NCBI RefSeq assembly: GCF_000801335.2 | Contig: NZ_JSEH01000031.1 | Coordinates: forward strand, 1-41,198 | Reading direction: 5' to 3' | Source of the DNA: Desulfovibrio sp. TomC | GTDB lineage: Bacteria; Desulfobacterota; Desulfovibrionia; Desulfovibrionales; Desulfovibrionaceae | DNA: 41,198 nt | In this document: positions 26,711-41,146 of the stretch, in pieces | Position numbering within the stretch: position 1 is the stretch's first letter | How the letters are laid out: every line of letters starts with the position of its first letter | Translations under genes and position numbers: made by a program | The notes under the pieces: generated by a model | Seen by the model: the letters and a program-made list of their open reading frames with translations, nothing else | What the model was told of the DNA's origin: nothing | Database searches by the model: none

Positions 26711-26812
26711 ACGGCGCAAGCGGGGGGAGTGGGAGAGGGGAAGGCGCAAGAGTGCCTCCGGCGGCCGGGAGGGGGTAACCCCCTCCCGGACCCTCCCTGA
26801 CTGGGGTCAGGG
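26711..26812 (+). repeat. 3'-end hairpin element, copy 1
   Basis: A purine-rich leader (26711-26753) is followed by the core GCCTCCGGCGGCC starting at 26754. A perfect 12-bp stem (arms 26765-26776 and 26778-26789, bounded by CC and GG) comes next, then ACCCT and a second hairpin CCCTGAC-TGGG-GTCAGGG (26795-26812). It lies directly after the IMP cyclohydrolase stop codon, on the same strand. Confidence 0.8.
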
Positions 26813-27428
26813 CCAGCGAGCTCTCGCGGCGGCCGGCCCGAAGCCGGCTGTCGGCGCGTTGACGCCCGACCAAATCCTCCTCCTCCTTGCTCCCTCGCTC
26901 CCGCCGTCGGGCTCCCCGTCGACCCCTTTTCCGACTGTCGCCGGCATCTGGCCTTTCTTGGCCACCCGGGCCGGCTTGCGGCGACATTTTCTTGACGGCC
27001 AGAGCGCCGCGTCATGTCCGACTCCAGGGCCTGGGTCTTCAAAACGCCGTGCGACGACGTCTGCCCGGGGCACACGGGAGGGGTTGCCTGGGCAACGGCG
27101 TCGTGAAAACTGTATCTGTATCGTTTTTTCTATGTACAATTTCGAAGAGCTGTTTGTGTAAATCAGCCAGTTCCCGGCCGTTGCGACGCCGTGAAGCGGG
27201 ATGTGTGCAGTATGTTCTGCTCCTGCGGTGTGTCTGTTGCCAAGAGAGAGAGGCCTGAAGGCGCAGGGGGCAGACAAAACGGACGCCGTAGCCCCAGGGG
27301 CCAGGAAAGTCGCCGGAGAAACCATTTCCACGGCTGCAAGTGGACAGGTATTCCAGCCTGTGGCATACCGGTAGCATAGTCAGCCGTTGCGTTCCCGCGG
27401 CTGCGCAATCCAGCCAGGAGGGAACGCC
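26813..27428. other. 616-bp gap upstream of the chemoreceptor gene
   Basis: No open frame here has a ribosome-binding site and a believable protein. The first part is GC-rich and the part around 27100-27170 is AT-richer, which could hold the chemoreceptor promoter, but I see no consensus -35/-10, sigma-28 or sigma-54 site. Confidence 0.5.
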
Positions 27429-29483
27429 ATGCGCCTGTCGCTTCGTGCAAAGTTCTTCGGCCCGATTCTCGGTATCGTCATCCTCGGTATGGCGGCCCTG
27501 GTGTATTTCAACGACCGGACAGTCAAAACGGCCTTTAAGAACGTCGAGAGCGAGTCCATGGCCCTGTTGAGTCAGGTCATGTCCAAGGACATCAGCGATT
27601 CGGTCAGCGCCAATCTCAGGCTGCTCGGCAGTTTCGCCCAGACGCCGCTGGTCGCGGCTGCTGCCCAGAACCAGGACACGGCCGCAGCCAGCGCCTTGTT
27701 CGGGGCCATGGCCAAGGGCATGACCGGCGCGGATTACGCCAACATTTTCGACGCCGCCGGATTGGTCACGGCCTCGTCCAATCCGGCCGCCGTCGGCAAG
27801 ATCAAAGTGGACGACCGGGATTACTTCAAACTGGTCATGCAGGAAGGGAAGAGCGATGTGGTCTCCAAGGCCATTATCAGCCGGACCACCAACAAGGCCG
27901 CCATCGTTTTGGCCCAACCCGTGCGGGACGGTTCCGGCAAGCTCGTGGGTATGGTCAATACCGGCATGGACTTGGAGTCCCTGACCGCGGACCTGGCGTC
28001 CACCAAGATCGGCCAGACCGGGTATGCCGTCATTCTGGACGCCCAGGGCATGGTTCTGGCCCATCCCGACAAAGCGCAGCTCATGAAGACCGACCTTGCG
28101 GCCACGGAGATCGGCAAGCGCATCCTGGCCACCACCGGCACCGCCGTCCTGGAATACCACGACGCCTCCGGCGCGCATTTGGCCGCCGTCACCCGCGACG
28201 CCAGAACGGGCTGGCGGGTGGTGGTCGAAGCGCCGCTGGCCGAATTCAGCGCCTTTGCCGACGCAGCCACCCGGCAAAATGCCGGCATTGCCCTGGCCCT
28301 GACCGTGGCCATCCTGGCGGCCATCGTCGTGTTGCTGGGCGTTGCCGTCCTTGGCAAGTTGCGGGTCTGCGTGGAGTTTGCCGCCGCCGTGGCCAAGGGC
28401 GACCTGAACCGCCGCCTGGACATCACTTCCGGCGACGAGTTGCAGACCCTGGGCGAGGCCCTCTCGGCCATGACCGCCAGCATCACGACCAATCTTGCCG
28501 AAGCCCATGCCAAGGGCGAGGAAGCCATGGCCCAGGCCGACCGGGCCGCCAAGGCCCTGGCCGATGCCCAGGCCGCCCAGGAGGAAGCCGAAGCCGCCAA
28601 GAGCCAGGGCATGGTCCTGGCTGCCGACCAGTTGCAGGGCGTCATGGAGGCGCTGACCGACGTGGCCGAACTGTTGTCGCGGGAAATCAGCACGGTCACG
28701 GCTTCGGTGGAAGAGCAGGAGCGTCGCACCACGGAAACCGCCACCGCCATGGAAGAGATGAACGCCACGGTCCTTGAGGTGGCCCGCAATGCCTCCGAGG
28801 CCTCGACCAAGGCCGACGCCGCCCGGGGGCAGGCTGTGGAAGGCCGCGCTGTGGTCGCCCGGTCCATGGCCGCCATCAGCCGGGTGGACACGGTGTCCCG
28901 CGAGGTTAAAGCCGGCATGGACGAGCTCGGGGCCAAGGCGCAAGCCATCGGGACCATCATGAACGTCATTTCCGACATTGCCGACCAGACCAACCTGCTG
29001 GCCTTAAACGCCGCCATCGAGGCGGCCCGGGCCGGCGAGGCCGGGCGCGGCTTTGCGGTCGTGGCCGACGAAGTGCGAAAGCTCGCCGAAAAGACCATGA
29101 CCGCCACCAAGGAAGTCGGGGCCTCTATCGGGGCCATCCAGACCGGGGCCAGGGACAGTATGGCCAAGGTGGACGAGGCGACGCAGGCCGTGGCCACGGC
29201 CACGGAGCTGGCCCGGGCCTCCGAAACGGCGCTGGGCGAGATCGTGGCCCTGGTGGACGACACCTCCTCCCAGGTCCAGGGCATTGCCACGGCGGCCGAA
29301 GAGCAATCGGCCACCACTGAGGAGATCAACCGGGCCGAGGAGCAGGTCAGCCGGCTGTCTTCGGAAATCGCCCATGGGATGCGGGAATCCGCCGGGGTGG
29401 TCGAGTCCATGGCCCGGCAGGTGGATGCCCTGGAAGAGCTGGTGGCCACGTTCCGCAGTCGCGGCGCAGGCAAGTCGCAGTAG
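27429..29483 (+). CDS. methyl-accepting chemotaxis protein with periplasmic Cache domain
   Basis: This 684-residue chemoreceptor has a first membrane segment ([19 protein letters not shown]), a periplasmic dCache-like domain (about 35-285; [34 protein letters not shown]), a second membrane segment (about 293-318), a HAMP domain, and the signalling domain. The hairpin tip is intact ([23 protein letters not shown]). No C-terminal CheR-binding pentapeptide is seen. It should feed CheA/CheW signalling to the flagellar motor; Cache domains of this type often bind amino acids or organic acids, but the ligand is unknown. AGGAGG precedes ATG 27429. Confidence 0.93.
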
Positions 29484-29507
29484 TCCTGCCTTGGCCTCGA
29501 ACGCCTG

Positions 29508-29537
29508 AAAAAGGCCCTGCTGCGGCGGGGCCTTTTT
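29508..29537 (+). terminator. intrinsic terminator after the chemoreceptor gene
   Basis: AAAAAGGCCC (29508-29517) pairs with GGGCCTTTTT (29528-29537) around a 10-nt loop. Confidence 0.9.
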
Positions 29538-29541
29538 ATTT

Positions 29542-29554
29542 GGAATACTATTCC
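29542..29554. promoter_or_regulatory. operator-like palindrome at the 3' end of the repressor gene
   Basis: GGAAT-ACT-ATTCC is a perfect palindrome with the same half-sites as the operator cluster at 30447-30494. A further GGAAT stands at 29571-29575, touching the repressor stop codon. It lies between the chemoreceptor terminator and the repressor gene end. Confidence 0.6.
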
Positions 29555-29574
29555 TTATATGCCTTAAAAAGGAA

Positions 29575-30414
29575 TCAGTCCAATTCCCGGGCGGTCCAGA
29601 TGCAACGACCGATGATTTCGAAATCGTCGGCATCGGACACCAGCAGGATGTTGGCGTCGCTGTCCGAAACGATGCCGAGCTGGCCGCCGACGTCCACCAG
29701 CCGCTTGATGTACATCTGGCCGTTGTGGCGCAGGTAGTAGACCTTGTTTTTTACGAACTGGCGGCGGCCTTCGTCGATGAGCACCACCGATCCGTCGGTG
29801 ATGGTCGGTTCCATGCTGTCGCCAAAGGCCCGGATGGCGGTCATGTATTCAGGGTTGCCCTTGGACCGGATCCAGTCGGTGCGAAAACTCAGGTAGGTCA
29901 GCGTGCGGTCGCCGGTTTCGGTGGACCCCCCGCCCATGGAGGCCGTGGCTTCGCGCAGCGGCACCTCGGTATACACCGACTCCCGCGTTTCCCGGGAACG
30001 CAGGTCCCGCAATATGGAGCGCAGGGCGGCGTGCTCTGCGCCGGTTCCCCGGCCGCCGGCCCCATCGCTGCCGCCGTAGGCCGGTTCGCGCACATGGAAG
30101 CGCCGCGTCGCCGGCCCTTCGGCCGGGTAGGGCATGGCTTCCAGGCGCTGTCGGCCAAGGGTCAGCAGGTCTTCGTAGGGCAGCTCGAAAAACTCGGCGA
30201 ACCGGCGGCGCAGTTTGGCCTTGGGCACCTGCTTGCCGGCCAGAATCTTGCTCACATAGCCCTGGCTCACCCCGACAAAGGCGGCCAGCTCGCCCTGGTT
30301 GGCCTCTTCCTCGGCGGTCAGTTCCACCAGGGCCTTCCAGAACTGCTGGTCCTCCTCGGTGCGAAAAGGACCCTCTTCCGGGGTGGGTTGGGGCTGGTCC
30401 GGACGTATCATCAT
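29575..30414 (-). CDS. phage-type repressor: HTH plus S24 (LexA/CI-like) domain
   Basis: The 279-residue protein has an N-terminal helix-turn-helix (NQGELAAFVGVSQGYVSKILAGKQVP, about 39-64) and a C-terminal S24 peptidase-like domain. The dyad is Ser200 in FGDSMEPTI and Lys237 in MYIKRL. At the place where relatives have an Ala-Gly cleavage pair it reads ASMGGG, Met160-Gly161. It probably binds the GGAAT/ATTCC palindromes upstream and represses both itself and the Mor-like gene. A stop codon lies in frame upstream, so the start is ATG 30414 or 30411. No clear Shine-Dalgarno precedes it, suggesting a short leader. Confidence 0.85.
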   Translation of the reverse strand: MMIRPDQPQPTPEEGPFRTEEDQQFWKALVELTAEEEANQGELAAFVGVSQGYVSKILAGKQVPKAKLRRRFAEFFELPYEDLLTLGRQRLEAMPYPAEGPATRRFHVREPAYGGSDGAGGRGTGAEHAALRSILRDLRSRETRESVYTEVPLREATASMGGGSTETGDRTLTYLSFRTDWIRSKGNPEYMTAIRAFGDSMEPTITDGSVVLIDEGRRQFVKNKVYYLRHNGQMYIKRLVDVGGQLGIVSDSDANILLVSDADDFEIIGRCIWTARELD

Positions 30415-30446
30415 GGGATTGTGCCCCAGTCAGGGAGGCAATGTCC

Positions 30447-30494
30447 ATTCCTTTTTTGGAATATTATTCTTGACAAATATTCCAATTAGGAATA
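30447..30494. promoter_or_regulatory. operator cluster between repressor and Mor-like gene
   Basis: Three palindromes built from the same half-site lie side by side: ATTCC-N6-GGAAT (30447-30462), GAAT-ATT-ATTC (30459-30469) and TATTCC-N5-GGAATA (30478-30494). The block is very AT-rich compared with its surroundings. It overlaps both divergent promoters, as in phage repressor switches. Confidence 0.75.
30461..30466 (-). promoter_or_regulatory. possible -10 box of the repressor gene
   Basis: On the minus strand this reads TAATAT, 47 nt upstream of the repressor ATG. The -35 region is poor. It sits inside the operator cluster, so autorepression is expected. Confidence 0.4.
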
Positions 30495-30498
30495 ATTC
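30470..30498 (+). promoter_or_regulatory. sigma-70 promoter of the Mor-like gene, overlapping operator
   Basis: A perfect -35 box TTGACA (30470-30475) is followed after 17 bp by TAATTC (30493-30498) as -10. The third palindrome occupies the spacer and the edge of the -10, so a bound repressor would block it. Confidence 0.65.
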
Positions 30499-30549
30499 GT
30501 CACGCAGGCAAGGCCGCTGTTCCACCCAAAGACCACGGAGACGGTTGCA

Positions 30550-30804
30550 ATGCGTGAAGCCGAGTTGGAGGCCACATTGGCGCAGAGCCTGGGAGAAGAA
30601 GCCGCCCGGGCTGCTCTGGACGCCCTGATCGCCGCCTGGGGCGGCTGCCGGCTGGATATTCCAAACGGGACATCGTCCCGCAAACGCCGGCGCGATGCCG
30701 AGATCCGGCGACGCCACCGCGACGGCGTGGACCTGTTCGCCCTGCGCGACCTGTACGGGTTGTCCGACCGCCATTTGCGGCGCATCCTGTACACAACCCA
30801 TTAG
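30550..30804 (+). CDS. Mor/C-family (Mu middle-operon) transcription activator-like protein
   Basis: This 84-residue protein shows the Mor signature in short form: an N-terminal helical part, AAWGGCRLDIPNG (matching the Mor GGxxxYIP strand region), a basic segment RKRRRDAEIRRR, and a C-terminal helix-turn-helix DLFALRDLYGLSDRHLRRIL. Mu Mor and C activate middle and late phage promoters by distorting DNA. Its own promoter overlaps the repressor operators, so it is probably silent until repression is lifted. GGAG lies 9 nt upstream. No Mu transposase or late genes are next to it. A 3'-end hairpin element follows. Confidence 0.75.
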   Translation: MREAELEATLAQSLGEEAARAALDALIAAWGGCRLDIPNGTSSRKRRRDAEIRRRHRDGVDLFALRDLYGLSDRHLRRILYTTH

Positions 30805-30861
30805 CCGGGCTGCGGCCCGCCCTGCCTGCCGCCGGACCGCCTGGTCCGGCGGTTTTGTTGA

Positions 30862-30936
30862 TGGGGGAGTGCGGGAGAAGGGGAAGAAGAGCCTCCGGCG
30901 GCCGGGGGCCTGAGGCCCCCGGCCCCCCCAAAGGGG
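30862..30936 (+). repeat. 3'-end hairpin element, copy 2
   Basis: A purine-rich leader (30862-30890) leads to the core GCCTCCGGCGGCC (30891-30903). The first stem is a perfect 9 bp, CCGGGGGCC-TGA-GGCCCCCGG (30902-30922), followed by CCCC-AAA-GGGG (30926-30936). It lies downstream of the Mor-like gene on the same strand. The rest of the gap to 31094 shows nothing I can name. Confidence 0.8.
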
Positions 30937-31094
30937 TTCAGGGGGACGGCGTGAACCCGACGGTGGTCGGGAACGGGAAAAATGATTCCGCCGGGGCTGG
31001 GCAATGCCGCCGTAGCGCAGGCCTGACAGGAACCACCGTTGTTGCGCCGTCCGACAGTTGCGCTGTCCGAAGCCTTGGGGGTCTGGGCGCGGCC

Positions 31095-32540
31095 CTATAA
31101 AATCGGCGCAAACAGGCGGCTCATCATGACGCCGGTTTTGAACAGAAAAGACCGGTCGGTGTAATCATCGGCCGTGGCCCGGACGCATCGGGCAAAATCC
31201 GTGCGCAGCATGGCCTCGACGGCGGCAATGAATCCCGGGTGGGCCACGGCCAGGGTGATTTCAAAGTTGAGGCGAAAGGACCGGTTGTCGCAGTTGGCCG
31301 TGCCCACGCTGGCCATGGTGTCGTCCACCAGGATGACTTTTTGGTGGAGAAACCCGTCCTGGTAGCGGTAGAACTTGACGCCCAGGGTTTCCAGGTCGGT
31401 CAGATAGGAAAACGATGCCAGATAGACCAGGTGGTGGTCGGCTTTTTGCGGCAGCATCACCCGGACATCCACGCCGCGAAGCACAGCCAGTTGCAGGGCC
31501 GAGACAATTTCCCGATCCGGCACGAAATAGGGAGACACGATCCACAGCCGGTCCTTGGCCGCCGAAATGGCCTGGAAAAAAAACAGGTCGCAGGATTCGA
31601 TGTCGTCAGCCGGCCCGGAGGGCAGGACCAGGGCCGACATCTCCCCTCCCGGGGCCGGGCGAAGCTCCCAGGCCAGGGTCGGCGTCTCCCGGGTGGCCCA
31701 GTACCAGTCCTCCAGGAAGCTCAGCTGGACCAGGGCGGCGGCCGGTCCCACGATCCGGACATGGGTGTCGCGCCAATGCCCCAGGCGGGGATTTTGGCCG
31801 AGATATTCGTCCCCGACATTGTGCCCGCCGAGAAAGGCGGTGACGCCGTCGACCACCACGATCTTGCGGTGGTTGCGGAAATTGAGCTGCAGGCGGTTGC
31901 GCCAGCCAAGCGTGGTGTTAAACGGGGAGATTTTCACGCCGGCCCGGGTCAGGTCGGCAATGTAGCCGGGGTCCAGCTTGTGGCAGCCGATCTCGTCGTA
32001 GAGCACGCGTACCGACACCCCGGCCCTGGCCTGGGCGATAAGCCGGTCCTTGAGCCGGCGGCCGAGGACGTCGTCGCGGATGATGAAAAACTGGACCAGG
32101 ACGTAGGACGTCGCCGCGTCGATGGCCGCGAAGATGGCCTCGAAGGTGGCCTCGCCGTCAATGAGCAGGCGCACGTCGTTGCCGGCGGTAAAGGGCAGTT
32201 CGGCCAGCCGCTCCAGGACCGGGAAAAGGCTTGGCAGACCCGGGGCGTGGCTGTCGGGGAAGGCCCGGCCGGCGTTTAATTCCGGGGCCATGGCATTGAC
32301 GATGCGGTCGCCGGCCCGGCGCGAGGCCACGTAGCCCTGGAAGCGGTTGCGCCCGAGAATCCAGTACAGCGGCACAGCCACGTAGGGGAAGGTGATCATG
32401 GCCATGACCCAGGCCAGCGCCCCCTGGGACGACCGGGCGGTGAAAAGCGCCCGGGCAGCGGAAGCAACGCCGATAAGGTGGCACAGGCCAAGAATGACAA
32501 ACAGCAAAGGCCCTCCCCGGCCGGCAGCGAGAAGACGCAC
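31095..32540 (-). CDS. cls: cardiolipin synthase-like phospholipase D family enzyme
   Basis: This 481-residue protein has two N-terminal membrane segments (PLLFVILGLCHLIGVASA; WVMAMITFPYVAVPLYWIL) and two HKD motifs, HRKIVVVD (224-231) and HQKVILVD (399-406), each followed by the usual Gly/Asn-rich segment (GGHNVGDEY; GTANCDNRSF). These form the two halves of the active site that joins phosphatidyl groups to make cardiolipin in the inner membrane. The frame opens with GTG 32540, which lacks a clear ribosome-binding site; TTG 32507, behind GGGGAGGG, may be the true start. It is divergent from the PRC-barrel gene. Confidence 0.88.
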   Translation of the reverse strand: MRLLAAGRGGPLLFVILGLCHLIGVASAARALFTARSSQGALAWVMAMITFPYVAVPLYWILGRNRFQGYVASRRAGDRIVNAMAPELNAGRAFPDSHAPGLPSLFPVLERLAELPFTAGNDVRLLIDGEATFEAIFAAIDAATSYVLVQFFIIRDDVLGRRLKDRLIAQARAGVSVRVLYDEIGCHKLDPGYIADLTRAGVKISPFNTTLGWRNRLQLNFRNHRKIVVVDGVTAFLGGHNVGDEYLGQNPRLGHWRDTHVRIVGPAAALVQLSFLEDWYWATRETPTLAWELRPAPGGEMSALVLPSGPADDIESCDLFFFQAISAAKDRLWIVSPYFVPDREIVSALQLAVLRGVDVRVMLPQKADHHLVYLASFSYLTDLETLGVKFYRYQDGFLHQKVILVDDTMASVGTANCDNRSFRLNFEITLAVAHPGFIAAVEAMLRTDFARCVRATADDYTDRSFLFKTGVMMSRLFAPIL

Positions 32541-32555
32541 AACGGCGTATTGTTC

Positions 32556-32583
32556 TTGACCGGCCTTTGCATCGTTCTATACG
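32556..32583 (+). promoter_or_regulatory. sigma-70 promoter of the PRC-barrel gene
   Basis: TTGACC (32556-32561), a 16-bp spacer and TATACG (32578-32583) form a good promoter. It would give a leader of about 50 nt before ATG 32642. Confidence 0.6.
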
Positions 32584-32641
32584 CACAGAACAGTTCCGGC
32601 AAGAAACGCCGTGATCCCACGCACCCCAACCGGAGACATCC

Positions 32642-33238
32642 ATGCACGAACCGCTGATCAATCTGCCCTTGGCCGCCCCGGTCTACGCCGGCGCAACCCT
32701 GGTCGGGCACGTCGAACACGTCATTGTCGATCCCTCCCATGGCCGGGCCACCTGGCTTGTGGTGCGCGAAAAAGCCCTGCCCAACACCCTGCGTCTGGTT
32801 GCGGAGAAGTTCGTGACGACCAGGAACGAGGACGGTGTGCATCTGTCCTGCGATGCGGCCAAAGTGGCCGGCATGCGCGAATACGTGATTACCGACTACT
32901 ACCCGCCGTCGTTTTTCCTGCATCTGGCTGCGGATGAAAAGTGCAAGCTGCCGCTGGCCCCGTCGAGCTGGACCGTGGAGCGTCCGGCCACGCCGCAAGG
33001 CTCCGTCGCCCTGACCGGGCACGAGGCGGTCTGGGCCACCGACGGCAAGGTCGGGAAACTCGACGGCGTCCACGTCGAGGCCCACACCGGCCGGGTGGTC
33101 GAGTTGCTGCTGCGCCAGGGCCATCTGTGGGGCGCACGCGAAGTGGCCATCCCGGCCGGGCTGGTGGCGGCCTATGAAGACGGCCTGGTGCGCCTGACCG
33201 TCGATACCGCCGCCGTCGGTGCGTTGCCGTCGGTGTAA
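32642..33238 (+). CDS. protein with two PRC-barrel-like domains
   Basis: The 198-residue protein appears to hold two similar beta-barrel units. The first contains AGATLVGHVEHVIVDPSHGRATWLVVREK, and the second AVWATDGKVGKLDGVHVEAHTGRVVELLLRQGHLWGAREVAIP. Both show the PRC pattern of a G-x-(V/L) turn followed by a D/E-x-x-T/S-G-R strand. There is no signal peptide, so it is cytoplasmic. PRC barrels occur in RNA-processing and photosynthetic proteins and in stress-related CsbD/PRC genes. The specific job is unknown. A 3'-end element follows its stop. Confidence 0.65.
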   Translation: MHEPLINLPLAAPVYAGATLVGHVEHVIVDPSHGRATWLVVREKALPNTLRLVAEKFVTTRNEDGVHLSCDAAKVAGMREYVITDYYPPSFFLHLAADEKCKLPLAPSSWTVERPATPQGSVALTGHEAVWATDGKVGKLDGVHVEAHTGRVVELLLRQGHLWGAREVAIPAGLVAAYEDGLVRLTVDTAAVGALPSV

Positions 33239-33331
33239 CGACGAGAGAGGGGGAGGCTGGAGGCAGGAGAAAGAAACGCGCCTCCGGCGGCCAAAGGGAC
33301 TGAGTCCCTTTGGAATCCCCTCCTGGGGGGA
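33239..33331 (+). repeat. 3'-end hairpin element, copy 3
   Basis: A purine-rich leader (33239-33279) runs into the core GCCTCCGGCGGCC (33280-33292). The first stem is a perfect 10 bp with loop TGA (33291-33313), bounded by CC and GG but with a different interior (AAAGGGAC) from the other copies. A second hairpin TCCCC/GGGGA follows (33316-33331). It follows the PRC-barrel gene directly, on the same strand. Confidence 0.8.
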
Positions 33332-33335
33332 GTTT

Positions 33336-33361
33336 GATTTGACCGAGTACGCCGTCAAATC
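33336..33361. repeat. 8-bp inverted repeat
   Basis: GATTTGAC (33336-33343) and GTCAAATC (33354-33361) flank 10 bases, directly after element copy 3. The remainder of this 392-bp gap up to the terminator at 33526 contains no recognisable gene. Confidence 0.5.
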
Positions 33362-33525
33362 GGCGGGCGGAAGTTCGGCAAGAGAAGATGGGAAAAGAGG
33401 CGGGGCCGTACCCTGCGGCGTTTGGCCTTGACGAGAACCGCGGTTGCTTTGGGCTCCTGGCCGCTTTCCACTGGTTGCGCCGCCGGCGCAACCGAACATC
33501 CGGCTCAACGGATGGGATAAAACGC

Positions 33526-33570
33526 AAAGCCGGCCCGTCTTCCCTGGTGGGGAGGACGGGCCGGCTTTTT
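33526..33570. terminator. strong terminator hairpin, probably for the HDOD gene and the plus strand
   Basis: A perfect 14-bp stem (33526-33539 with 33555-33568) is flanked by five T on the plus strand (33566-33570) and by three A (three T on the minus strand). It lies between the convergent PRC-barrel and HDOD genes. Confidence 0.75.
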
Positions 33571-33630: not shown

Positions 33631-34920
33631 TTAGTGGACGCGCTTGCCCGGGGGCGGCGGGGCATCGGCCTGGCTGACGAAAAAGCCGCTGCTGTAGGCC
33701 ATGGCCTCGCTGGCGCAGACCTTGACGGCGTCGAGTTCCAGGCCCAGCCGGCGGGTCAGCTCCGAGAGCCTGCCCCAGTCCGAGTCCTCGATGCACTCGG
33801 CCAGATCGAGCAGGGGCTGGTATTCGTTTTGCGAGTCCCGGCGCAGGGCGGACTTGAGCTTTTCATCCAGGGGCAGATGTTCGGCCACCTTGGCCATGGG
33901 CAGGCCCAGGATGGCGTCGAGCAGGGAAAAAAGTCCGAGCAAAAAGAGCGTGCTGGGATTGAAGTCCCAGAAGTCGTAGCGCATGGTCACCAGTTCCATG
34001 AGCCGGGCGCGCTGCAAGGACAGTTCGGCCAGCTCCCGGGGCATGTCGCCGCCCTGGGACATGTCGGCCAGAAGGACCGCCCGCAGCCAGTTGCGGATTT
34101 TGATGCTGCCAAGGACCATGATGGCCTGGCGGATGGACTGGATTTTTTGCGGAAACCCGAAGGCGGCGCTGTTTAGGTAGGACAAGAGCCGAAAGCTCAC
34201 GGACACGTCGGCGGAAATGGCCTCGGCCAGGGCGTCCACGTCCGGGTCCTCGGACTCGATCAGGGTGAGCAGCTGGAACCGGCTCATCTGGTGGGAGGTG
34301 AGCTTTCGTTCGGCGATAATCTCGGGTTCCTTGAAGAAGCGGCCCTGGAAGAGGGTGAAGCCGGCGGCCTTGAGGCTTTCGAAATGGTCCAGGTTGGCCA
34401 CCCGCGAGGCCCATAAGGTGGCTTTGCCGCCCCCCTTGCGGGCGCGGGCGGCGATGGCGGCCGGATCGCCTTCCTGGCCGGCGTCGAAGCACCACAGGTC
34501 GGCCAGTTCGGCCAGCTCCGGCAGGTTTGGGTGGGCCGGCCCGACGTCCACGGCCAGGGAATAGCCGTCGCTGCGAAGCCGGCTGGCGGCGTCGAGGACG
34601 GCCTTGGCCTGGGTGATCCGGCCGGTGAATTTGACCACGCCGTGGGCCGGGGGCAGGGCATAGGGAGCCTGGGCCAGGAAGCCGGCCTCGTCAAACGGGG
34701 CCACCACCTTCTTGCCGCGTTCCACCGCGTGTTGCACCCCCATGTAGGAGGTGGAGGCCAGGGAGCCGGCCAGTTGTTCCTGGTCGGCAAAACAGACGGG
34801 GGCCGTGCAGGCTTCGGCCCCGCCCTGGATTTCGTAGCCCCACAGCTTGCGCTTGACGTCAAAGAGGGCTTGTTTGGTGAAAAAAAACGGACTGGCGCTC
34901 TGCTGGCCGCTCTCGCTCAT
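33631..34920 (-). CDS. EAL-like / HDOD signalling protein (YuxH type)
   Basis: This 429-residue cytoplasmic protein has a degenerate EAL-like N-terminal half (FTKQALFDVKRKLWGYEIQ, FDEAGFLAQAP, GYSLAVDVG, TLFQGRFFKEPE). It lacks the catalytic EAL/ExL metal residues, so it probably binds rather than cleaves cyclic-di-GMP. The C-terminal HDOD domain (about 210-400) has LLTLIESEDPDVDALAEAISADVSVSFRLLSYLNSAAFGF, its signature. Such proteins act as regulatory scaffolds. The start at 34920 has a weak ribosome-binding site. A 15-bp palindrome sits just upstream, and the two-component genes lie upstream in the same direction. Confidence 0.82.
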   Translation of the reverse strand: MSESGQQSASPFFFTKQALFDVKRKLWGYEIQGGAEACTAPVCFADQEQLAGSLASTSYMGVQHAVERGKKVVAPFDEAGFLAQAPYALPPAHGVVKFTGRITQAKAVLDAASRLRSDGYSLAVDVGPAHPNLPELAELADLWCFDAGQEGDPAAIAARARKGGGKATLWASRVANLDHFESLKAAGFTLFQGRFFKEPEIIAERKLTSHQMSRFQLLTLIESEDPDVDALAEAISADVSVSFRLLSYLNSAAFGFPQKIQSIRQAIMVLGSIKIRNWLRAVLLADMSQGGDMPRELAELSLQRARLMELVTMRYDFWDFNPSTLFLLGLFSLLDAILGLPMAKVAEHLPLDEKLKSALRRDSQNEYQPLLDLAECIEDSDWGRLSELTRRLGLELDAVKVCASEAMAYSSGFFVSQADAPPPPGKRVH

Positions 34921-34957
34921 GATCGACCCCGGTCTTGGTTGACGTTTGGGTGCGGCT

Positions 34958-34972
34958 AAACCAGGCTGGTTT
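34958..34972. promoter_or_regulatory. operator-like palindrome upstream of the HDOD gene
   Basis: AAACCAG-G-CTGGTTT is a perfect 7-bp inverted repeat with a one-base centre, about 40 bp upstream of the HDOD start codon. Confidence 0.45.
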
Positions 34973-35041
34973 GTCCCAAACATGCCCCAGGCGCGCGGCG
35001 TTGACAATGGTTTTCCTGATTCAGTTGCCGGCGTCGCCGGA

Positions 35042-36472
35042 TCAGGTCCGACCGTCCGGGACCGGCTGGCCGGCGGCTTGCGGCGTGGGCAGGGTGAAGG
35101 TGAAGGCGCTGCCCCGGCCCAGGGTGCTTTGCACCTCAATGCACACGCCGTGGGCGAAAAGCACGGCCCGCACCAGGGACAGGCCCAGGCCCAGGCCGCG
35201 GTTGGACCGGCTTTTATCCGCCCGGTAGAGGCGGTCGAAAATGCGGGGAATCTCGTCGGCGAGCATCCCTTCGCCGGTGTCGGCCACCCGGACCGCCACC
35301 CCGTTGCCCACCTGGGTGGCGGCGATGGTCACCTGTCCGCCCGGGGGCGTGTACTTGACGGCGTTGTCGAGCAGGTTGGCCAGCACTTGCCGCATCCGGT
35401 CGGCGTCGGCCACCACCGGCAGGGGACCTTTGACCTGGCCAAGCAGGGACACCTGTTTGGCCTCGGCGGCGTACTCGTAGAGGTCCAGGGCGTCGGCCAC
35501 CAGGACGGCCATGTCCACCGGCCCCAGGCGCAGGCGCATGGCCCCGGTCTCGGCTTCGGAGATGTCCATCAGGATGCCGAGCATGGACACGATGCGCCGG
35601 GTTTCCTCGGCGCAGTCGAGCAGGGCCTCGCGCAACTCTTCGGGATCGTTTTTGGTGGCCGCCGCCACTTCCACGGCCGCCAGGGTGCGGGTGGCCGGCG
35701 TGCGCAGGTCGTGGGCCACGTTGTCGAGCGCCTCGCGCATTCCGGTGATGAGCGTGCGGATCTTGTCCAGCATGGCGTTAAAGAGCCGGGCCAGTTCGCT
35801 CAATTCGTCGTCCACCCCCACTTCCGGCACCCGGGCGTCCATGCGGCCGGTGTCGATGGCCCGGACGGTGTCGATCAGGTCTTTGATCGGGGTGAGCACC
35901 CGCCGGGCCAGGATAAAGCCGGCGGCCAGACCGATCAGGGCCACCGGGACCATGATGCCGGCGAAAATGACCCGGAAGCGGGCAAGGAGTTCCTCGCGTT
36001 CGCTGGCGTCCTTGCCGAGATAGACGGCCCCGCCGCCGGGCAGGGTGCGGCAGGCCACTTCGGTGAGGCTGCCGGCTTGGGTCGGATCGGGCAGGAAAAA
36101 CCACTGGACCGATTGGTCCGGGACGATGGGCAGGATTTGGGGCAGCGGCGGGGTCTCGTCCGGGCCGAAGTTGATAAGAGGGGCGCCGTCCGGACTGTCC
36201 ACGCGCAGCAGATACTGCTCGATGTCGATGTTCTCCCGTTCCAGGCGCAGAAAATCGACCAGACCGGTCAGACCCTTTTTCTGGCTGACCGAGGCGTATT
36301 CCCGAAGCTTCTGGGTCATGGCCGCCCGGTCGCCCTCGCGCACGGCCTGGGAGAGCAGGGAATAGGCCAGCAGGAAAAGCGTGACGGAACTGGCGATGAA
36401 AATGAGGGAATACAGGCCGGTCAGGCGAAGGGTGGTGGATCGGAACAGCGGCTGCCTATTCCTTGAGAACAT
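35042..36472 (-). CDS. membrane sensor histidine kinase (HAMP-HisKA-HATPase)
   Basis: This 476-residue kinase has a membrane segment (LYSLIFIASSVTLFLLAYSLL), a periplasmic sensor of about 120 residues, a second membrane segment (FAGIMVPVALIGLAAGFIL), a HAMP domain, phosphorylated His254 in NVAHDLRTPATR, an N box NLLDNAVKYTPPGG, and G boxes DTGEGM and GLGLGLSL. The general layout matches CusS/QseC-like kinases of OmpR-type pairs. The start at 36472 overlaps the response-regulator stop by 17 nt, so the pair is coupled. The stimulus is unknown; the sensor resembles no ligand domain I can name. Confidence 0.9.
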   Translation of the reverse strand: MFSRNRQPLFRSTTLRLTGLYSLIFIASSVTLFLLAYSLLSQAVREGDRAAMTQKLREYASVSQKKGLTGLVDFLRLERENIDIEQYLLRVDSPDGAPLINFGPDETPPLPQILPIVPDQSVQWFFLPDPTQAGSLTEVACRTLPGGGAVYLGKDASEREELLARFRVIFAGIMVPVALIGLAAGFILARRVLTPIKDLIDTVRAIDTGRMDARVPEVGVDDELSELARLFNAMLDKIRTLITGMREALDNVAHDLRTPATRTLAAVEVAAATKNDPEELREALLDCAEETRRIVSMLGILMDISEAETGAMRLRLGPVDMAVLVADALDLYEYAAEAKQVSLLGQVKGPLPVVADADRMRQVLANLLDNAVKYTPPGGQVTIAATQVGNGVAVRVADTGEGMLADEIPRIFDRLYRADKSRSNRGLGLGLSLVRAVLFAHGVCIEVQSTLGRGSAFTFTLPTPQAAGQPVPDGRT

Positions 36473-37127
36473 ACCCGACCCCGCGCAGGGTATGGAGCAT
36501 CTTTTTGTCGTAGTCCCGGTCGATCTTGTTGCGCAGCCGGCACACGAGCACGTCCACGAGATTGGTCTGGGGATCGAAATGGTAATCCCAGACATGCTCC
36601 ATGATCATGGTCTTGGAGAGCACCTTGCCGGGATTGCGCATGAAGTATTCGAGCAGGGCGAACTCCCGGGGCTGGAGCTGCACGGCCGTCTCGCCCCGGG
36701 TCACGTCCCGGGTGAGCAGGTTCATGGACAGTTCGCCAACCGTCAGCCGGGTCGGTTCGGCGGTGCTGGTGGCCCGGCGGATCAGGGCCTGGACCCGGGC
36801 CAGCAGTTCGGCAAAGGAGAAGGGCTTGGACAGGTAGTCGTCGCCGCCGGTCTCCAGGCCCCGCACCCGGTCTTCCACCGACCGCTTGGCCGACAGGATG
36901 ATGATCGGGGTCATGATCTTGCGCCGACGCAGTTCCTCGATCACCTTGAGCCCGTCCATGCCCGGCAGCATCACGTCGATGATGGCCACGGAATAGGGTT
37001 CCGTGGCGGCCAGATGCAGGCCGTCCGGACCATTGGCGGCATGGTCCACGGCAAAGCCGCTCTGCCGCAGGCCTCCCAGGATGAATGAGGCGATTTTCTC
37101 ATCGTCCTCGACGAGGAGGATGCGCAT
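36456..37127 (-). CDS. OmpR-family response regulator
   Basis: This 223-residue regulator has a receiver with acidic pocket Glu7-Asp8-Asp9, phosphoacceptor Asp51 and Lys101, then a winged-helix DNA-binding domain (PREFALLEYFMRNPGKVLSKTMIMEHVWDYHFDP, ending LRGVGYVL). ATG 37127 is favoured because the frame upstream of it crosses the predicted promoter. An array of GTAA sites at 11-bp spacing lies upstream, between this gene and the divergent peptide gene, and is the likely target. It forms an operon with the kinase. Confidence 0.92.
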   Translation of the reverse strand: MRILLVEDDEKIASFILGGLRQSGFAVDHAANGPDGLHLAATEPYSVAIIDVMLPGMDGLKVIEELRRRKIMTPIIILSAKRSVEDRVRGLETGGDDYLSKPFSFAELLARVQALIRRATSTAEPTRLTVGELSMNLLTRDVTRGETAVQLQPREFALLEYFMRNPGKVLSKTMIMEHVWDYHFDPQTNLVDVLVCRLRNKIDRDYDKKMLHTLRGVGYVLKE

Positions 37128-37199
37128 GGGGCGGTCGTCCTTTGGGCTGATATCGGCGTTCGGGCTGGCGGGCGCCGGCGGCCGTACGGGTTGAGTCTC

Positions 37200-37228
37200 T
37201 TTATACATACCTGGGCACATAATGACCA
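37200..37228 (-). promoter_or_regulatory. sigma-70 promoter of the two-component operon
   Basis: On the minus strand TGGTCA (37223-37228) and TATAAA (37200-37205) are separated by 17 bp. Transcription would start near 37193, giving a 66-nt leader to ATG 37127. Confidence 0.6.
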
Positions 37229-37268
37229 GGGGCCGGTTCGGCCATGACTTTCAGCCTTTTTTCATTTC

Positions 37269-37347
37269 TGTAATTGCTGGGTAAGAAGGAAGTAACATGC
37301 TGAAATGTTCCTGAAAATAGCTTTCAGGGTTGTAATGGGAGCGTAAG
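37269..37347. promoter_or_regulatory. array of GTAA direct repeats at 11-bp spacing (OmpR-type sites)
   Basis: GTAA occurs at 37270, 37281 and 37292, each exactly 11 bp apart, and again at 37332 and 37343. The two outer units (37269-37285 and 37331-37347) share the pattern TGTAAT-N-G-NN-G-N-GTAAG. Between them TGAAA occurs at 37301 and 37312, also 11 bp apart. One-turn phasing of direct repeats is the usual binding pattern of OmpR-family regulators. Confidence 0.65.
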
Positions 37348-37506
37348 CGGCCGGCAAGGGAGCGGACCCTAGACAGGAGCCTGTCGACACGTCGGCGTTG
37401 TTGCCCCGGTCGACGCAGGAGGGCAGGCCCCGCTGGGGGAAGCCTTTCTGGTCGGTAGGGGGGAGTTTTCAGTTAAAACGTTTATCGTCCAATGGGAGAT
37501 TATAGC

Positions 37507-37686
37507 ATGAAAAAGGTCGTCATCTTCACCGTCGTGTCCTGCCTGCTCGCCACCTCCATGGCTTTCGCCGGCACCAAGAAAAAGACCAAAAAGACCACCA
37601 AGGGCGACACCAGCAGCTACTCCGAAGTGCTCAAGGCCAAGAAAAAGACCAAAAAGTCCACCACCACCACGACTCCCGCCAACTAG
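37507..37686 (+). CDS. lysine/threonine-rich secreted peptide
   Basis: This 59-residue protein has a signal peptide (MKKVVIFTVVSCLLATSMAFA) and a mature part of about 38 residues made almost only of Lys, Thr, Ser and Gly, with KKKTKK occurring twice. The charge is strongly positive. GGGAG precedes ATG 37507. A terminator follows, so it is monocistronic. It is divergent from the two-component operon with the 11-bp-phased sites in between, which suggests control by that system. I do not recognise a family; binding to anionic envelope polymers or lipids is only a guess. Confidence 0.7.
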   Translation: MKKVVIFTVVSCLLATSMAFAGTKKKTKKTTKGDTSSYSEVLKAKKKTKKSTTTTTPAN

Positions 37687-37739
37687 ACCTTTTTCGTGGC
37701 CCAAGCGGGAGTGGCCCGCCATATATCGCTGTGCCGTAA

Positions 37740-37766
37740 GGCCGGGGCTTCCCCCGGCCTTTTTTG
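37740..37766 (+). terminator. intrinsic terminator after the lysine-rich peptide gene
   Basis: GGCCGGGG (37740-37747) pairs with CCCCGGCC (37752-37759) around CTTC, followed by seven T (37760-37766). Confidence 0.9.
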
Positions 37767-37803
37767 TGGCCTGCGGCGCGGGATCGCAATCCTTGGCCCT
37801 GGA

Positions 37804-37809
37804 TTGACA
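37804..37809 (+). promoter_or_regulatory. possible -35 box of the amino-acid transporter operon
   Basis: A perfect TTGACA stands 113 nt upstream of the ATPase gene, but no good -10 box lies 16-18 bp downstream. This is a candidate only. Confidence 0.3.
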
Positions 37810-37921
37810 AAACGGGTGGATTCGCGCACTTTTGGGCATTCACGAGCGCCTTGCCGAAAAGCCGCCTGCGGCCGTCGCAAGGCGAGTGCATTTGCTTTTG
37901 CCCAAAGGAATCGGTGCGTCC

Positions 37922-38650
37922 ATGGCCATGATCGAATTTCATAACGTCCAGAAATGGTACGGCGATTTCCATGTGCTCAAGGGCATCACGGATTCCGTGG
38001 ACCAGGGCGAAGTGCTTGTCATCTGCGGCCCGTCCGGGTCGGGGAAATCCACCCTGATCCGCTGCGTCAACCGCCTGGAAGAATACCAAAAAGGCCATAT
38101 CCTGTTTGACGGCCATGACATCCACGGCGACGACGTGGACGTCAACCGCCTTCGCTGCGACATCGGCATCGTGTTCCAGCAGTTCAATCTCTATCCCCAT
38201 CTGTCCGTGCTCAAAAACATCACCCTGGCTCCGATCAAGGTCAAAAAGATGGGGCGCAAGGAAGCCGAGGAGCTGGGGCTGGCCCTCCTGGAGCGCGTCG
38301 GCATCCACGAACAGGCCAAAAAATTTCCGGCCGAACTCTCCGGCGGCCAGCAGCAGCGCGTGGCCATTGCCCGGGCCCTGGCCATGCAGCCCAAGGTCAT
38401 GCTCTTTGACGAGCCGACCTCGGCGCTGGACCCGGAAATGATCAACGAAGTCCTGAATGTCATGAAGGATCTGGCCCGCGACGGCATGACCATGCTGTGC
38501 GTCACCCATGAAATGGGCTTTGCCCGGGAAGTGGCCGACCGGGTGATTTTCATGGACTTTGGCGAGATACTGGAAAGCGCCCCGCCGGTGGAATTCTTCC
38601 AGAACCCCCGGCATGATCGCACCCGGCTTTTCCTCAAGGAAATTCTCTAG
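37922..38650 (+). CDS. polar amino-acid ABC transporter, ATP-binding protein (GlnQ/GltL type)
   Basis: This 242-residue ATPase has Walker A GPSGSGKS (36-43), Q-loop [12 protein letters not shown], signature LSGGQQQR (139-146), Walker B VMLFDE (159-164) and the H-loop in [15 protein letters not shown]. The [14 protein letters not shown] segment is typical of the polar amino-acid uptake subfamily. The dimer drives import at the inner membrane through the two permeases encoded downstream. AAAGGA lies about 12 nt before ATG 37922; ATG 37928 is an alternative. It is the first gene of a four-gene operon. Confidence 0.93.
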
Positions 38651-38704
38651 CGCCAAAGCGGGCAGCAGCCCGCGAACCCTCAAAATGTCTGAAAGGAGGC
38701 TTCC

Positions 38705-39523
38705 ATGCGCATTGCAGCCCGGATCATCGTCCTCGCCTGCCTGCTCACCCTTGTTGCGGCCATGCCTGCCCTGGCCGGCAAGCTCGACGACATCAAGTCG
38801 CGCGGCACCCTTGTCGCCGGCGTCAAGGACTCCCAGCGTCCCTTCGGTTTCGTGGATGAGAAGACGAACCAGATCGTGGGCTTTGAGATCGATCTCATGG
38901 CGGCCCTGGCCCAGCGCCTGGGCGTCAAGCTCGATACCAAGCCCGTGACCTCCTCCACCCGCATCCCCATGCTCACCCAGGGGGCCGTGGACATCCTGGC
39001 CGCCACCATGACGCATAAAAAAGAGCGCGAAGACCAGGTCGATTTCTCCATCACCTATTTCATGACCGGCCAGAAGCTGCTCGTCAAAAAAGACGGCGGC
39101 ATCAAGTCCGTGGCCGACCTGGACGGCAAGAAGGTCGGTTCCGTCAAAGGTTCCACCTCTGAACAGAATGTGAAAAAGGCCCAGCCCGGCTGCACCGTCA
39201 TCTCCTTTGAGACCTACCCCGAGGCCTTCCTGGCCCTCAAGCAGGGCAAGGTCCAGGCCATGACCACTGATGAGTCGATCCTGGTCGGCATCAAGAACAG
39301 CGACGACAAGCCTGAAGCCTGGGACATCGTCGGCGACTACATCTCCCCCGAACCCTACGGCCTGGGCGTTCCGGAAAATGATTCCAAGTTCCGCGATTAC
39401 GTCAACCTGGCTCTTATGGATATGTGGGCCAAGGGCGAATACCAGAAAATTTATGAAAAGTGGTTCGGCAAGGACACCAAGGACTACATCCCACTGACCT
39501 GGAAGATGGAGTACTGGCCGTAG
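38705..39523 (+). CDS. periplasmic amino-acid-binding protein (glutamate/aspartate type)
   Basis: This 272-residue family-3 solute-binding protein has a signal peptide (MRIAARIIVLACLLTLVAAMPALA). The mature protein starts GKLDDIKSRGTLVAGVKDSQRPFGFVDE. The ligand carboxylate Arg is in TSSTRIPMLTQG, and the amino-group Asp is in MTTDESIL. This resembles PEB1/GltI-type binders of acidic amino acids, though the exact ligand is not proven. AAAGGAGG precedes ATG 38705. It feeds the two permeases encoded next. Confidence 0.9.
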   Translation: MRIAARIIVLACLLTLVAAMPALAGKLDDIKSRGTLVAGVKDSQRPFGFVDEKTNQIVGFEIDLMAALAQRLGVKLDTKPVTSSTRIPMLTQGAVDILAATMTHKKEREDQVDFSITYFMTGQKLLVKKDGGIKSVADLDGKKVGSVKGSTSEQNVKKAQPGCTVISFETYPEAFLALKQGKVQAMTTDESILVGIKNSDDKPEAWDIVGDYISPEPYGLGVPENDSKFRDYVNLALMDMWAKGEYQKIYEKWFGKDTKDYIPLTWKMEYWP

Positions 39524-39618
39524 CCGCTGCCGGGTAACGACGTTTGCACGCGGCCGGGGGACATTCCTCCGGCCGCCCTTGCGCCGGGCGCATCCCGGCC
39601 GGCTTTTGGGGAAGACTC

Positions 39619-40320
39619 TTGGCGTATCAATTTGATTTTGGACAGGTGGTCAGCGGGGAATACGGCCAGTGGCTGCTTTCGGGCCTTTCCACCACGCTGC
39701 ACATCTCCGGCATAGCCATTGTGCTGTCGCTTGGGCTTGGCACGATGGTGGCCGTTATGCGGCTGTCCAAGGTGCGCCCGCTGGTCTGGGCTGCGGCCAT
39801 CTTTACGGAATTTTTCCGCAACACGCCGCTTCTGGTACAGATTTTCTTCTGGTATTTCGGCTCGTACAGTGTCCTTCCCGAGGCGGTCAACCAGTGGCTC
39901 TACGCCCGGGATTTCGAGTTCGCCTGTGGCGTTATTGCCCTGACCGTCTACACCGCCGCCTTTATTGCCGAGGAAATCCGTTCCGGTATTTTTTCCATTC
40001 CCAAAAACCAGCTCGAAGCCTCCCGGGCCTGCGGCCTGTCCTTTATCCAGGCCATGGCCTACGTGATTTTGCCCCAAGCCTTCCGGGTGATTATTCCACC
40101 CCTTATTTCCCAGTTTTTGAACCTGATCAAAAATTCGTCCCTGGTCATGACCATCGGCGTCATGGATCTCACCTACATGGCCCGGCAGATCGAGGCCCAT
40201 ACCTTTCACGGCTTTGAAGCCTTTACCGTGTCCACAATGATGTATCTCACGATCTCCCTGATCGTTTCCCTCGGCGTCAACCTCTACAATCGGTACGTGC
40301 TGCACGTCCGTTCACGGTAG
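39619..40320 (+). CDS. amino-acid ABC transporter permease 1
   Basis: This permease of the His/Glu/Gln/Arg type has about five membrane helices. The conserved coupling loop is EASRACGLSFIQAMAYVILPQAFRVIIPP (the EAA motif contacting the ATPase), and EFFRNTPLLVQIFFWYF is the family's N-terminal signature. I favour the TTG at 39619 (GGGGAAG upstream), giving 233 residues. The frame stays open to a TTG at 39544, but that extension is Gly/Arg-rich and unlike the family. The second permease starts 10 nt after its stop. Confidence 0.88.
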   Translation: MAYQFDFGQVVSGEYGQWLLSGLSTTLHISGIAIVLSLGLGTMVAVMRLSKVRPLVWAAAIFTEFFRNTPLLVQIFFWYFGSYSVLPEAVNQWLYARDFEFACGVIALTVYTAAFIAEEIRSGIFSIPKNQLEASRACGLSFIQAMAYVILPQAFRVIIPPLISQFLNLIKNSSLVMTIGVMDLTYMARQIEAHTFHGFEAFTVSTMMYLTISLIVSLGVNLYNRYVLHVRSR

Positions 40321-40330
40321 GAGGCTGACG

Positions 40331-41026
40331 ATGCATTGGGACACCGTTTACAAAAATTTCGACTACCTGCTGGTCGGGGCCTATCCGCAAGGACCGCTTG
40401 GCGGGTTGGCCATGACCGTCATGCTGGCCATCGGCGGCATCTTCGGGGCCTTCTGGCTGGGCCTTGGCTGCGGTCTCATGCGCATCTCCGGCAAACGCCG
40501 CCTGCGCTGGCCGGCCATGTTCTTTATTGAGATCATCCGGGGCACGCCGCTTCTGATGGTCGTCTTCTGGTTTTATTTCCTGGCTCCGGTGCTCTTTGGC
40601 CACAGCCTGCCCGAAGCCCAAAGCGCACTCATTGCCCTGATCGTCTTTACCAGCGCCTATATCGCCGAGATCGTGCGGGCCGGGGTCGAGGCCCTGCCCA
40701 AGGGCCAGATGGAGGCGGCGCGCGGCTCGGGCCTGTCCCATGTCCAGGCCATGGTCTTCATTATTTTGCCCCAGGCGCTCTTCAACATGATTCCGTCCTT
40801 CGTCAACCAGTTCGTTTCCTTGACCAAAGACACCTCGCTGGCCTTTATCATCGGGGTCAACGAGCTGACCAAGGCCGCAACCCAGGTCAACAACCGCACG
40901 CTGACCGCTCCCACGGAAATTTTCATCACCATCGCCCTGCTCTATTTCGTCATCTGCTACTGCCTGACGGAATTTTCCCGCTATCTCGAACGCCGCATCA
41001 ACCGCTACCAGGCCCGGGGCCGGTAG
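40331..41026 (+). CDS. amino-acid ABC transporter permease 2
   Basis: The 231-residue permease pairs with the preceding one. Signature segments are FIEIIRGTPLLMVVFWFYF and the coupling loop MEAARGSGLSHVQAMVFIILPQALFNMIPSFVNQF. About five membrane helices are visible. AGGAGG precedes ATG 40331. Together with the ATPase and binding protein it completes an uptake system for a polar amino acid. A 3'-end hairpin element follows the stop codon. Confidence 0.93.
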   Translation: MHWDTVYKNFDYLLVGAYPQGPLGGLAMTVMLAIGGIFGAFWLGLGCGLMRISGKRRLRWPAMFFIEIIRGTPLLMVVFWFYFLAPVLFGHSLPEAQSALIALIVFTSAYIAEIVRAGVEALPKGQMEAARGSGLSHVQAMVFIILPQALFNMIPSFVNQFVSLTKDTSLAFIIGVNELTKAATQVNNRTLTAPTEIFITIALLYFVICYCLTEFSRYLERRINRYQARGR

Positions 41027-41146
41027 AGGGCGAGGGCGAGGGCGGAGGCGAAGGCGAAGATGCCTCCGGCGGCCGGGGCTTTGCCCCGGACCCCACCGGG
41101 GGGATGATCCCCCCGGACCCCTCGCCGGGAGAAGTTTTTAAGGGGG
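41027..41146 (+). repeat. 3'-end hairpin element, copy 4
   Basis: A purine-rich leader (41027-41061) is followed by the core GCCTCCGGCGGCC (41062-41074). The first stem is CCGGGGC-TTT-GCCCCGG (41073-41089). The second is a perfect 10-bp palindrome with a one-base centre (41096-41116). GGAGGC in the leader can also pair with GCCTCC of the core. A short T run (41135-41139) follows. It directly follows the last permease gene. Confidence 0.8.

What the first reader, a model, noticed from the sequence alone, without database searches (positions are those of the whole stretch)
26711..41146. Dispersed 3'-end element family with a fixed GCCTCCGGCGGCC core and covarying stems
Four copies (26754, 30891, 33280, 41062) share a G/A-rich leader, the same 13-base core, a first hairpin bounded by CC and GG, and a second hairpin a few bases on. 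The first-stem interiors differ (GGGAGGGGGT, GGGGGCC, AAAGGGAC, GGGGC), yet every one is perfectly self-complementary. Such compensatory change is hard to explain except by selection on, or copying of, a structure. All four lie on the plus strand 35-86 nt after the stop codon of a plus-strand gene, and they lack standard T runs. They may shape 3' ends (stability, rho-dependent ending, protein binding) or be a miniature mobile element with taste for gene ends. A 13-base match on the minus strand at 15051-15063 lacks the hairpin.
Basis: seen in the sequence. Interest (0 to 1): 0.8.

Follow-up and report, generated by a model that had tools for sequence, protein, structure and literature searches.

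The report
Tagged hairpin repeats hugging gene ends
Small DNA hairpins marked by one nearly unchanging 12-letter tag sit in many copies at gene ends of sulfate-reducing bacteria; they look like a new branch of the known REP-type repeats, and in one other genus the tag also appears to serve as the ribosome-binding site of the next gene.

Summary
The 13-base core occurs 277 times in this 5.07 Mb genome (reversed control 1) and 117-363 times in each of 13 same-genus genomes; the genus is Solidesulfovibrio. The 12-mer reaches dozens of copies or more in several other genera of the family, one at 49% G+C. A unit is tag, perfect hairpin, short tail. In the sampled 381 kb, 29 of 35 placed cores follow a same-strand stop codon by 2-86 nt. 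Compensatory change is not what separates orthologous copies at the one gene end compared closely: the whole hairpin module is swapped. Stop-side stems show no G-T excess. In G165, another genus, about half the tags lie on the start-codon side, where the inverted tag can supply the Shine-Dalgarno GGAGG. The tail resembles a parallel complement (mirror image) of the stem, unexplained. Best reading: a REP/BIME-like tagged repeat spread by copying, without GTAG tag or consistent RAYT transposase. A role at RNA 3' ends is neither shown nor excluded. I found no paper describing it.

The parts
26711..26753 (+). G/A-rich leader of copy 1, right after the stop codon of an IMP cyclohydrolase-like gene (26117-26710)
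   Evidence: MGS domain plus the start of an AICARFT/IMPCHase domain
26754..26766 (+). copy 1 core GCCTCCGGCGGCC
26765..26789 (+). copy 1 hairpin 1: CCGGGAGGGGG, loop TAA, CCCCCTCCCGG
26790..26797 (+). copy 1 tail ACCCTCCC; after its A it is the parallel complement of stem GGGAGGG
26795..26812 (+). copy 1 predicted hairpin 2
30829..30859 (+). canonical intrinsic terminator (hairpin plus TTTTGTT) between the Mor-family gene and copy 2; a like terminator is present in relative G013
30891..30903 (+). copy 2 core
30902..30922 (+). copy 2 hairpin 1: CCGGGGGCC, loop TGA, GGCCCCCGG
31023..31042 (+). 3' module of copy 2, 3 mismatches to TTGACGGGAACCACCGTTGC
33280..33292 (+). copy 3 core, after a PRC-barrel gene
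33291..33313 (+). copy 3 hairpin 1: CCAAAGGGAC, loop TGA, GTCCCTTTGG; tail AATCCC at 33314-33319
33428..33447 (+). 3' module of copy 3, 3 mismatches to TTGACGGGAACCACCGTTGC
41062..41074 (+). copy 4 core, after an ABC-transporter permease gene
41073..41089 (+). copy 4 first hairpin: CCGGGGC, loop TTT, GCCCCGG
41096..41116 (+). copy 4 stacked second hairpin: CCGGGGGGA, loop TGA, TCCCCCCGG
41172..41198 (-). probable end of an inverted partner unit cut off by the contig end; resembles the inverted unit that is whole in G013 and G006
15051..15063 (-). lone core without the CC-stem-GG-A architecture; probably chance or a relic

Best explanation
It is a REP/BIME-like family of tagged palindromic repeats. 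One unit is a 12-13-base tag (GCCTCCGGCGGC[C]), a perfect hairpin of about 7-22 bp whose sequence is interchangeable, and a C-rich tail. Units stand alone after stop codons, stack, or lie as inverted pairs, often of different type. Inferred: copies spread and are renewed by a copying process, transposition by an unidentified enzyme and/or gene conversion, which keeps the tag uniform and swaps hairpin modules whole. They persist where tolerated: after stop codons and, in G165, before start codons, where the inverted tag brings its own GGAGG ribosome-binding site. Shown here: abundance, tag uniformity, anatomy, placement, presence and absence at orthologous sites, module swapping at one site, position of GGAGG before starts. 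Not shown: the enzyme, movement, translation from that site, or any effect on RNA.
For: 277 exact cores in the genome against 1 reversed control; 117-363 in each of 13 congeners; 12-mer in 169 of 199 genomes of the order, with G165 (49% G+C) at 124 copies and 0 controls. Placement in contig C3 plus window: 29 stop-side of 35 placed cores, one at the 48 divergent gaps (Fisher p 0.003 counting cores against gaps). IMP cyclohydrolase gene end: core in 10 of 14 genomes, stems differ. ybaB-recR gap, 16 genomes: exact 11-mer tag in 6, decayed tag by eye in 5, no recognisable tag in 5. Module swap. Unlike inverted units 125-133 nt apart (tag starts) in G013 and G006. G165: 15 of 32 inverted tags close to a start lie 4-10 nt from it, gene caller without Shine-Dalgarno bonus (p 6e-7 against a uniform spread over 61 positions).
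Against: No enzyme found: Y1 transposase matches are absent in 9 of 17 high-copy genomes and no other transposase family was searched. No target duplication seen, by eye, in 10 inward pairs. No exact empty site was found: absence is seen only in more distant species, and two of the five tagless recR gaps (G123, G166) still hold a hairpin with a similar tail. Promoter gaps are not avoided in G022 (6 of 29 placed cores at divergent gaps). Persistence of the tag at one gene end in 10 of 14 genomes also fits a host function. The mirror-like tail does not follow from copying.
Confidence: 0.6

Rival explanations
1. A host RNA element kept in place by selection: a hairpin that ends, trims or protects mRNA 3' ends (U-less or Rho-assisted), with the tag bound by a protein.
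For: Strong stop-side placement in this genus; 23 of 28 element-bearing ends lack a detectable T-tailed terminator, though 111 of 154 ends without the element lack one too; core kept at one gene end in 10 of 14 genomes; RNA fold z-scores -1.4 to -4.0 for 7 copies; start-side stems read on the mRNA strand as 13 G-U to 5 A-C.
Against: Stop-side stems show 9 G-T and 16 A-C mismatches; T-tailed terminators at ends with against without the element: 5/28 vs 43/154, 13/33 vs 128/372, 4/9 vs 34/179, 3/25 vs 39/191 in G000, G165, G022, G091, no consistent direction; some copies follow ready terminators; in G165 half the placed copies are on the start side.
Confidence: 0.2
2. A classical MITE: its ends are terminal inverted repeats of a DDE-type insertion sequence that moves it in trans.
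For: Inward tag pairs 199-307 nt long in G165 (10 pairs); of 28 gaps listed with one tag, about 12 hold, by eye, a decayed inverted tag at the other end.
Against: No target duplications by eye in 10 pairs; interiors differ and some hold terminator-like hairpins; in G022 several pairs point outward; in this genus most units stand alone at gene 3' ends.
Confidence: 0.1
3. A DNA signal: binding site for a chromosome-organising protein, or a DNA-uptake tag.
For: Long uniform tag in hundreds of copies, as for Neisseria and Haemophilus uptake signals, which also sit in terminators (PMC1852404, passages).
Against: Tags are mostly outside genes (inside: 4 of 40 in G000, 3 of 78 in G165, 5 of 48 in G091, but 12 of 43 in G022) and usually come with a hairpin, whereas uptake signals generally number 1,000 or more (same passages) and also lie in genes (recalled).
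Confidence: 0.05

Closest known systems
REP elements and BIMEs (GTAG-tagged palindromes)
   Same: High-copy extragenic palindromes with a fixed 5' tag, arranged as inverted pairs, often of unlike stems (PMC3733652 and PMC8266576, passages)
   Different: Tag is 12-13 bases and not GTAG; stems are interchangeable; no consistent Y1/RAYT gene; mirror-like tail; inverted tag can act as a ribosome-binding site
CGTC-tagged palindromic repeats (PMC3733652, passages)
   Same: Tagged palindromes said there to lack a dedicated transposase; short unpaired tails
   Different: CGTC tag, tails mostly CCA; 'Desulfovibrio' has 0 occurrences in that text
ERIC-like enterobacterial intergenic repeat units
   Same: MITE-like repeats in intergenic regions (PMC2759123, start of abstract in a listing)
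   Different: Units of 103-168 bp with their own sequences; here modular hairpins with a uniform tag
Uptake-signal terminators of Neisseria and Pasteurellaceae (PMC1852404, passages)
   Same: Short uniform repeat located at gene ends in hairpins
   Different: There two copies of the repeat form the stem; here the tag lies outside a variable stem

Membership tests
REP/BIME (RAYT-associated) | GTAG-type tetranucleotide tag 5' of a 20-50 nt palindrome | tested here: not met
   Tag is GCCTCCGGCGGC[C]; definition from PMC8266576 passages
REP/BIME (RAYT-associated) | Cognate RAYT (Y1 transposase) in the genome | tested here: not met
   9 of 17 high-copy genomes have no Y1_Tnp match, including G010 with 388 12-mers; own genome has one, with a stop inside and no tag in its 2.1 kb locus
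REP/BIME (RAYT-associated) | High copy, extragenic, arranged partly as inverted pairs | tested here: met
MITE | Terminal inverted repeats | tested here: inconclusive
   Inward tag pairs in G165, both inward and outward pairs in G022, mostly single units in this genus
MITE | Target-site duplication | tested here: not met
   Flanks of 10 pairs differ, by eye
MITE | Transposase sharing the ends | not tested
   Only Y1 transposases were searched
Intrinsic terminator | Hairpin directly followed by a T run | tested here: not met
   Tail starts with A and is C-rich at positions 2-7 over 73 distinct arms
Structured RNA under selection | Covariation with tolerated G-U pairs on the transcribed strand | tested here: inconclusive
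   Stop side 9 G-T, 16 A-C; start side on the mRNA strand 13 G-U, 5 A-C
A family in Rfam 15 | Match at the gathering score | tested here: not met
   0 in the window and in L033, L037, L039, L042; at E up to 1 only two sub-threshold hits, outside the copies

The most novel reading that the evidence does not exclude
The unit is tag, X, loop, reverse complement of X, GG-A, then roughly the complement of X in the same direction. A parallel complement cannot arise by copying, so it points to a structure in which the tail lies alongside the stem (a hairpin triplex or parallel pairing, or guide-type contacts as in single-strand transposition), recognised by an unknown enzyme. This would be a new type of mobile hairpin whose tag also lets it sit next to start codons without silencing the gene.
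Probability: 0.15. Interest if true: 0.85.

Novelty: new variant of a known kind. Interest (0 to 1): 0.6.

Why it matters
It would add a third, long-tagged class to the tagged palindromic repeats of bacteria, abundant in several genera of a family of sulfate reducers, and offers a testable case of a repeat that supplies the ribosome-binding site it displaces. The mirror-tail rule, if functional, would point to an unusual nucleic-acid structure. Practically, it would affect operon, terminator and 3'-end predictions in these genomes.

Tried and rejected
RAYT link: not met. Rfam: no match at gathering score; at E up to 1 two sub-threshold hits outside the copies. Terminator as the sole role: no consistent difference in T-tailed terminators. 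RNA selection by wobble pairs: stop side 9 G-T to 16 A-C, start side in mRNA sense 13 to 5; undecided, small numbers, and G-T was scored as a mismatch so stem tips were trimmed. Tail as direct repeat of the 3' arm: 33 of 90 positions, below permuted tails, against 75 of 90 for the parallel complement at fixed register; but in looser tests the direct-repeat form also exceeds permutation (z 5.9 against 11.4), as does ordinary antiparallel pairing of the tail with its own 5' arm (z 7.1 against 10.2). An alternative hairpin between tail and 5' arm is therefore not excluded. Tail pairing with downstream DNA or leader: not above permutation. Genes bracketed by tags: 0 of 338 in the first 20 G165 stretches. 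Tag variants GCCTTCGGCGA and GTCTCCGACGGC were noticed by eye and may be by descent. A survey of Sphingomonadales could not be run.
Full report
Observation. Hairpin 1 is perfect in each of the four; distances from the same-strand stop codon are 43, 86, 41 and 35 nt. Copy 4 has two stacked hairpins, and a canonical terminator lies upstream of copy 2. In the whole genome the exact 13-mer occurs 277 times (reversed control 1).

Distribution. The 13 other genomes of the genus hold 117-363 copies each; ten genomes of other genera of the family 0-127; sixteen of other families of the order 0-4. With the 12-mer, 169 of 199 genomes of the order have a match; counts run from dozens to over 100 in several genera of the window's family, stay low in others (genus g24 mostly under 20), and are near background in other families. 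In 198 genomes of the phylum most counts outside the family are near their reversed controls, with one clear outlier, G242, at 76 against 5. The genus is Solidesulfovibrio: contigs of G006 and G012 have the lengths of the named S. aerotolerans and S. magneticus contigs that carry the same gene. G165 has 49% G+C and 124 copies, reversed control 0, so base composition does not explain the tag.

Anatomy. Units start with the tag; from its last bases a perfect stem follows (68 distinct hairpins in one survey of part of the loci; commonest loops TGA in 12 and TTC in 9), then GG or AG, A, and a C-rich tail. This genome has stem classes GGGGGGA, GGGGGCC, AAAGGG, GGGGC and others. Some copies carry 3' modules: of 11 hits to TTGACGGGAACCACCGTTGC (reversed control 2), 10 lie 94-146 nt after a core; of 18 hits to CCGGTCGGCTGCGGACCGGGAC (reversed control 10), 11 lie behind a core, six of them at 81-82 nt, and 7 do not.

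Placement. My simple gene caller (not a curated annotation) gives, for contig C3 plus the window: 40 12-mers, 4 inside genes, 35 placed, 29 of them stop-side at 2-86 nt, one at a divergent gap. In G165 (40 stretches chosen around known cores, so rates are biased upward): 78 cores, 3 inside genes, 33 stop-side and 35 start-side in co-directional gaps, 4 convergent, 3 divergent. G022 (20 stretches, chosen likewise): 43 cores, 12 inside genes, 15 stop-side, 14 start-side of which 6 at divergent gaps, often far from genes. G091 (20 stretches): 48 cores, 5 inside genes, 31 stop-side, 10 start-side, none divergent.

Shine-Dalgarno use. The inverted tag reads GCCGCC-GGAGG-C. In G165, with a gene caller without Shine-Dalgarno bonus, 15 of 32 inverted tags found in the 80 nt before a start lie 4-10 nt from it. 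At recR, whose start is fixed by orthologues, GGAGG of the tag ends 7 nt before the start in G165 and G163; in G399 and G400 that tag is decayed (GCCGAAGGC); G020 and G117 keep AGAGG downstream of the unit; of the five gaps without a recognisable tag four have AGAGG and one (G128) has another purine stretch; G123 and G166 among them still hold a hairpin with a similar tail. One of 17 genomes gave no recR. Translation from these sites is inferred.

History. At the IMP cyclohydrolase gene end 10 of 14 genomes have the core, with very different stems; four lack it, one of them visible for only 84 nt. At the PRC-barrel gene end this genome and G013 share the downstream terminator and a similar leader but have different stem classes; two more distant relatives, G004 and G010, lack the tag there. 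So variation between orthologous copies is, at least there, replacement of a module. Stem mismatches in core orientation over four genomes total 14 G-T and 29 A-C: stop side 9 and 16, start side 5 and 13. The stop side speaks against wobble tolerance in the mRNA; the start side, where the mRNA is the other strand, would fit it. Neither is decisive.

Unexplained tail. With one tail per arm and a fixed register, 75 of 90 tail positions over 18 informative arms match the parallel complement of the 5' arm, against 51 for permuted tails (maximum 66 of 5000); the direct-repeat form gives 33. With gapped alignment over 42 arms z is 11.4, against 5.9 for the direct-repeat form, 5.0 for the mirror of the 5' arm and 1.8 for a copy of it. 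Ungapped over 47 arms it is 10.2 against 7.1 for antiparallel pairing with the own arm. Arms are related by descent, so these are not independent, and low-G+C arms of the CTTAAACCC class match poorly. In aligned blocks of long arms C is seldom matched by G (3 of 24).

Beyond the family. Novosphingobium replicons carry the 11-mer tag followed by a GCAAAGGG hairpin and AATCCC tail; two records hold 3 copies each of the 13-mer GCCTCCGGCGGGC, and in the N. humi record two of them form an inverted pair about 217 nt apart, one behind a T-tailed terminator. A typed 38-base unit gave weak matches in 52 plasmid records at E up to 10, many in Pseudomonas; I did not examine these and they may be chance palindromes. 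Of two viral contigs with a 19-base match, one carries two units.

Known relatives. [quoted passage not shown] CGTC-tagged repeats are said to lack a dedicated transposase (PMC3733652, passages). The unit resembles these but fails the tag and RAYT tests, so I call it a new variant of tagged palindromic repeats, not a REP. I found no held paper that describes it: searches, of which I saw listings, plus passages of five papers; most subscription papers are not held.

Noticed in passing
G242 loci L277-L301: A genome outside the order has 76 copies of the 12-mer, several in tandem, often with hairpins like CAAACTTTTGAAAAAGTTTG and tail ATCAAAACTTTT; horizontal spread or older origin is open.
   Followed up: partly
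L304 20001-20220; L305: Novosphingobium replicons carry the same architecture (11-mer tag, GCAAAGGG stem, AATCCC tail); in L304 as an inverted pair, one unit behind a T-tailed terminator.
   Followed up: partly
L303 732 (+) and 4640 (-): A viral contig (IMG/VR) carries two units of the family.
   Followed up: no
L223, L233, L234, L236: In G022 some units point outward with only 33-55 nt between the two tags, the reverse of the G165 arrangement.
   Followed up: no
G165 stretches and recR loci L201-L216: Tag variants GCCTTCGGCGA and GTCTCCGACGGC recur, with paired changes at bases 5 and 11 or 2 and 8 (by eye).
   Followed up: no
G165, e.g. L171, L181, L186: Some units have a recurrent upstream piece like TTGATGCGCTTCGCGCTTTTTGAT...AAAGATTTC before the tag.
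   Followed up: no
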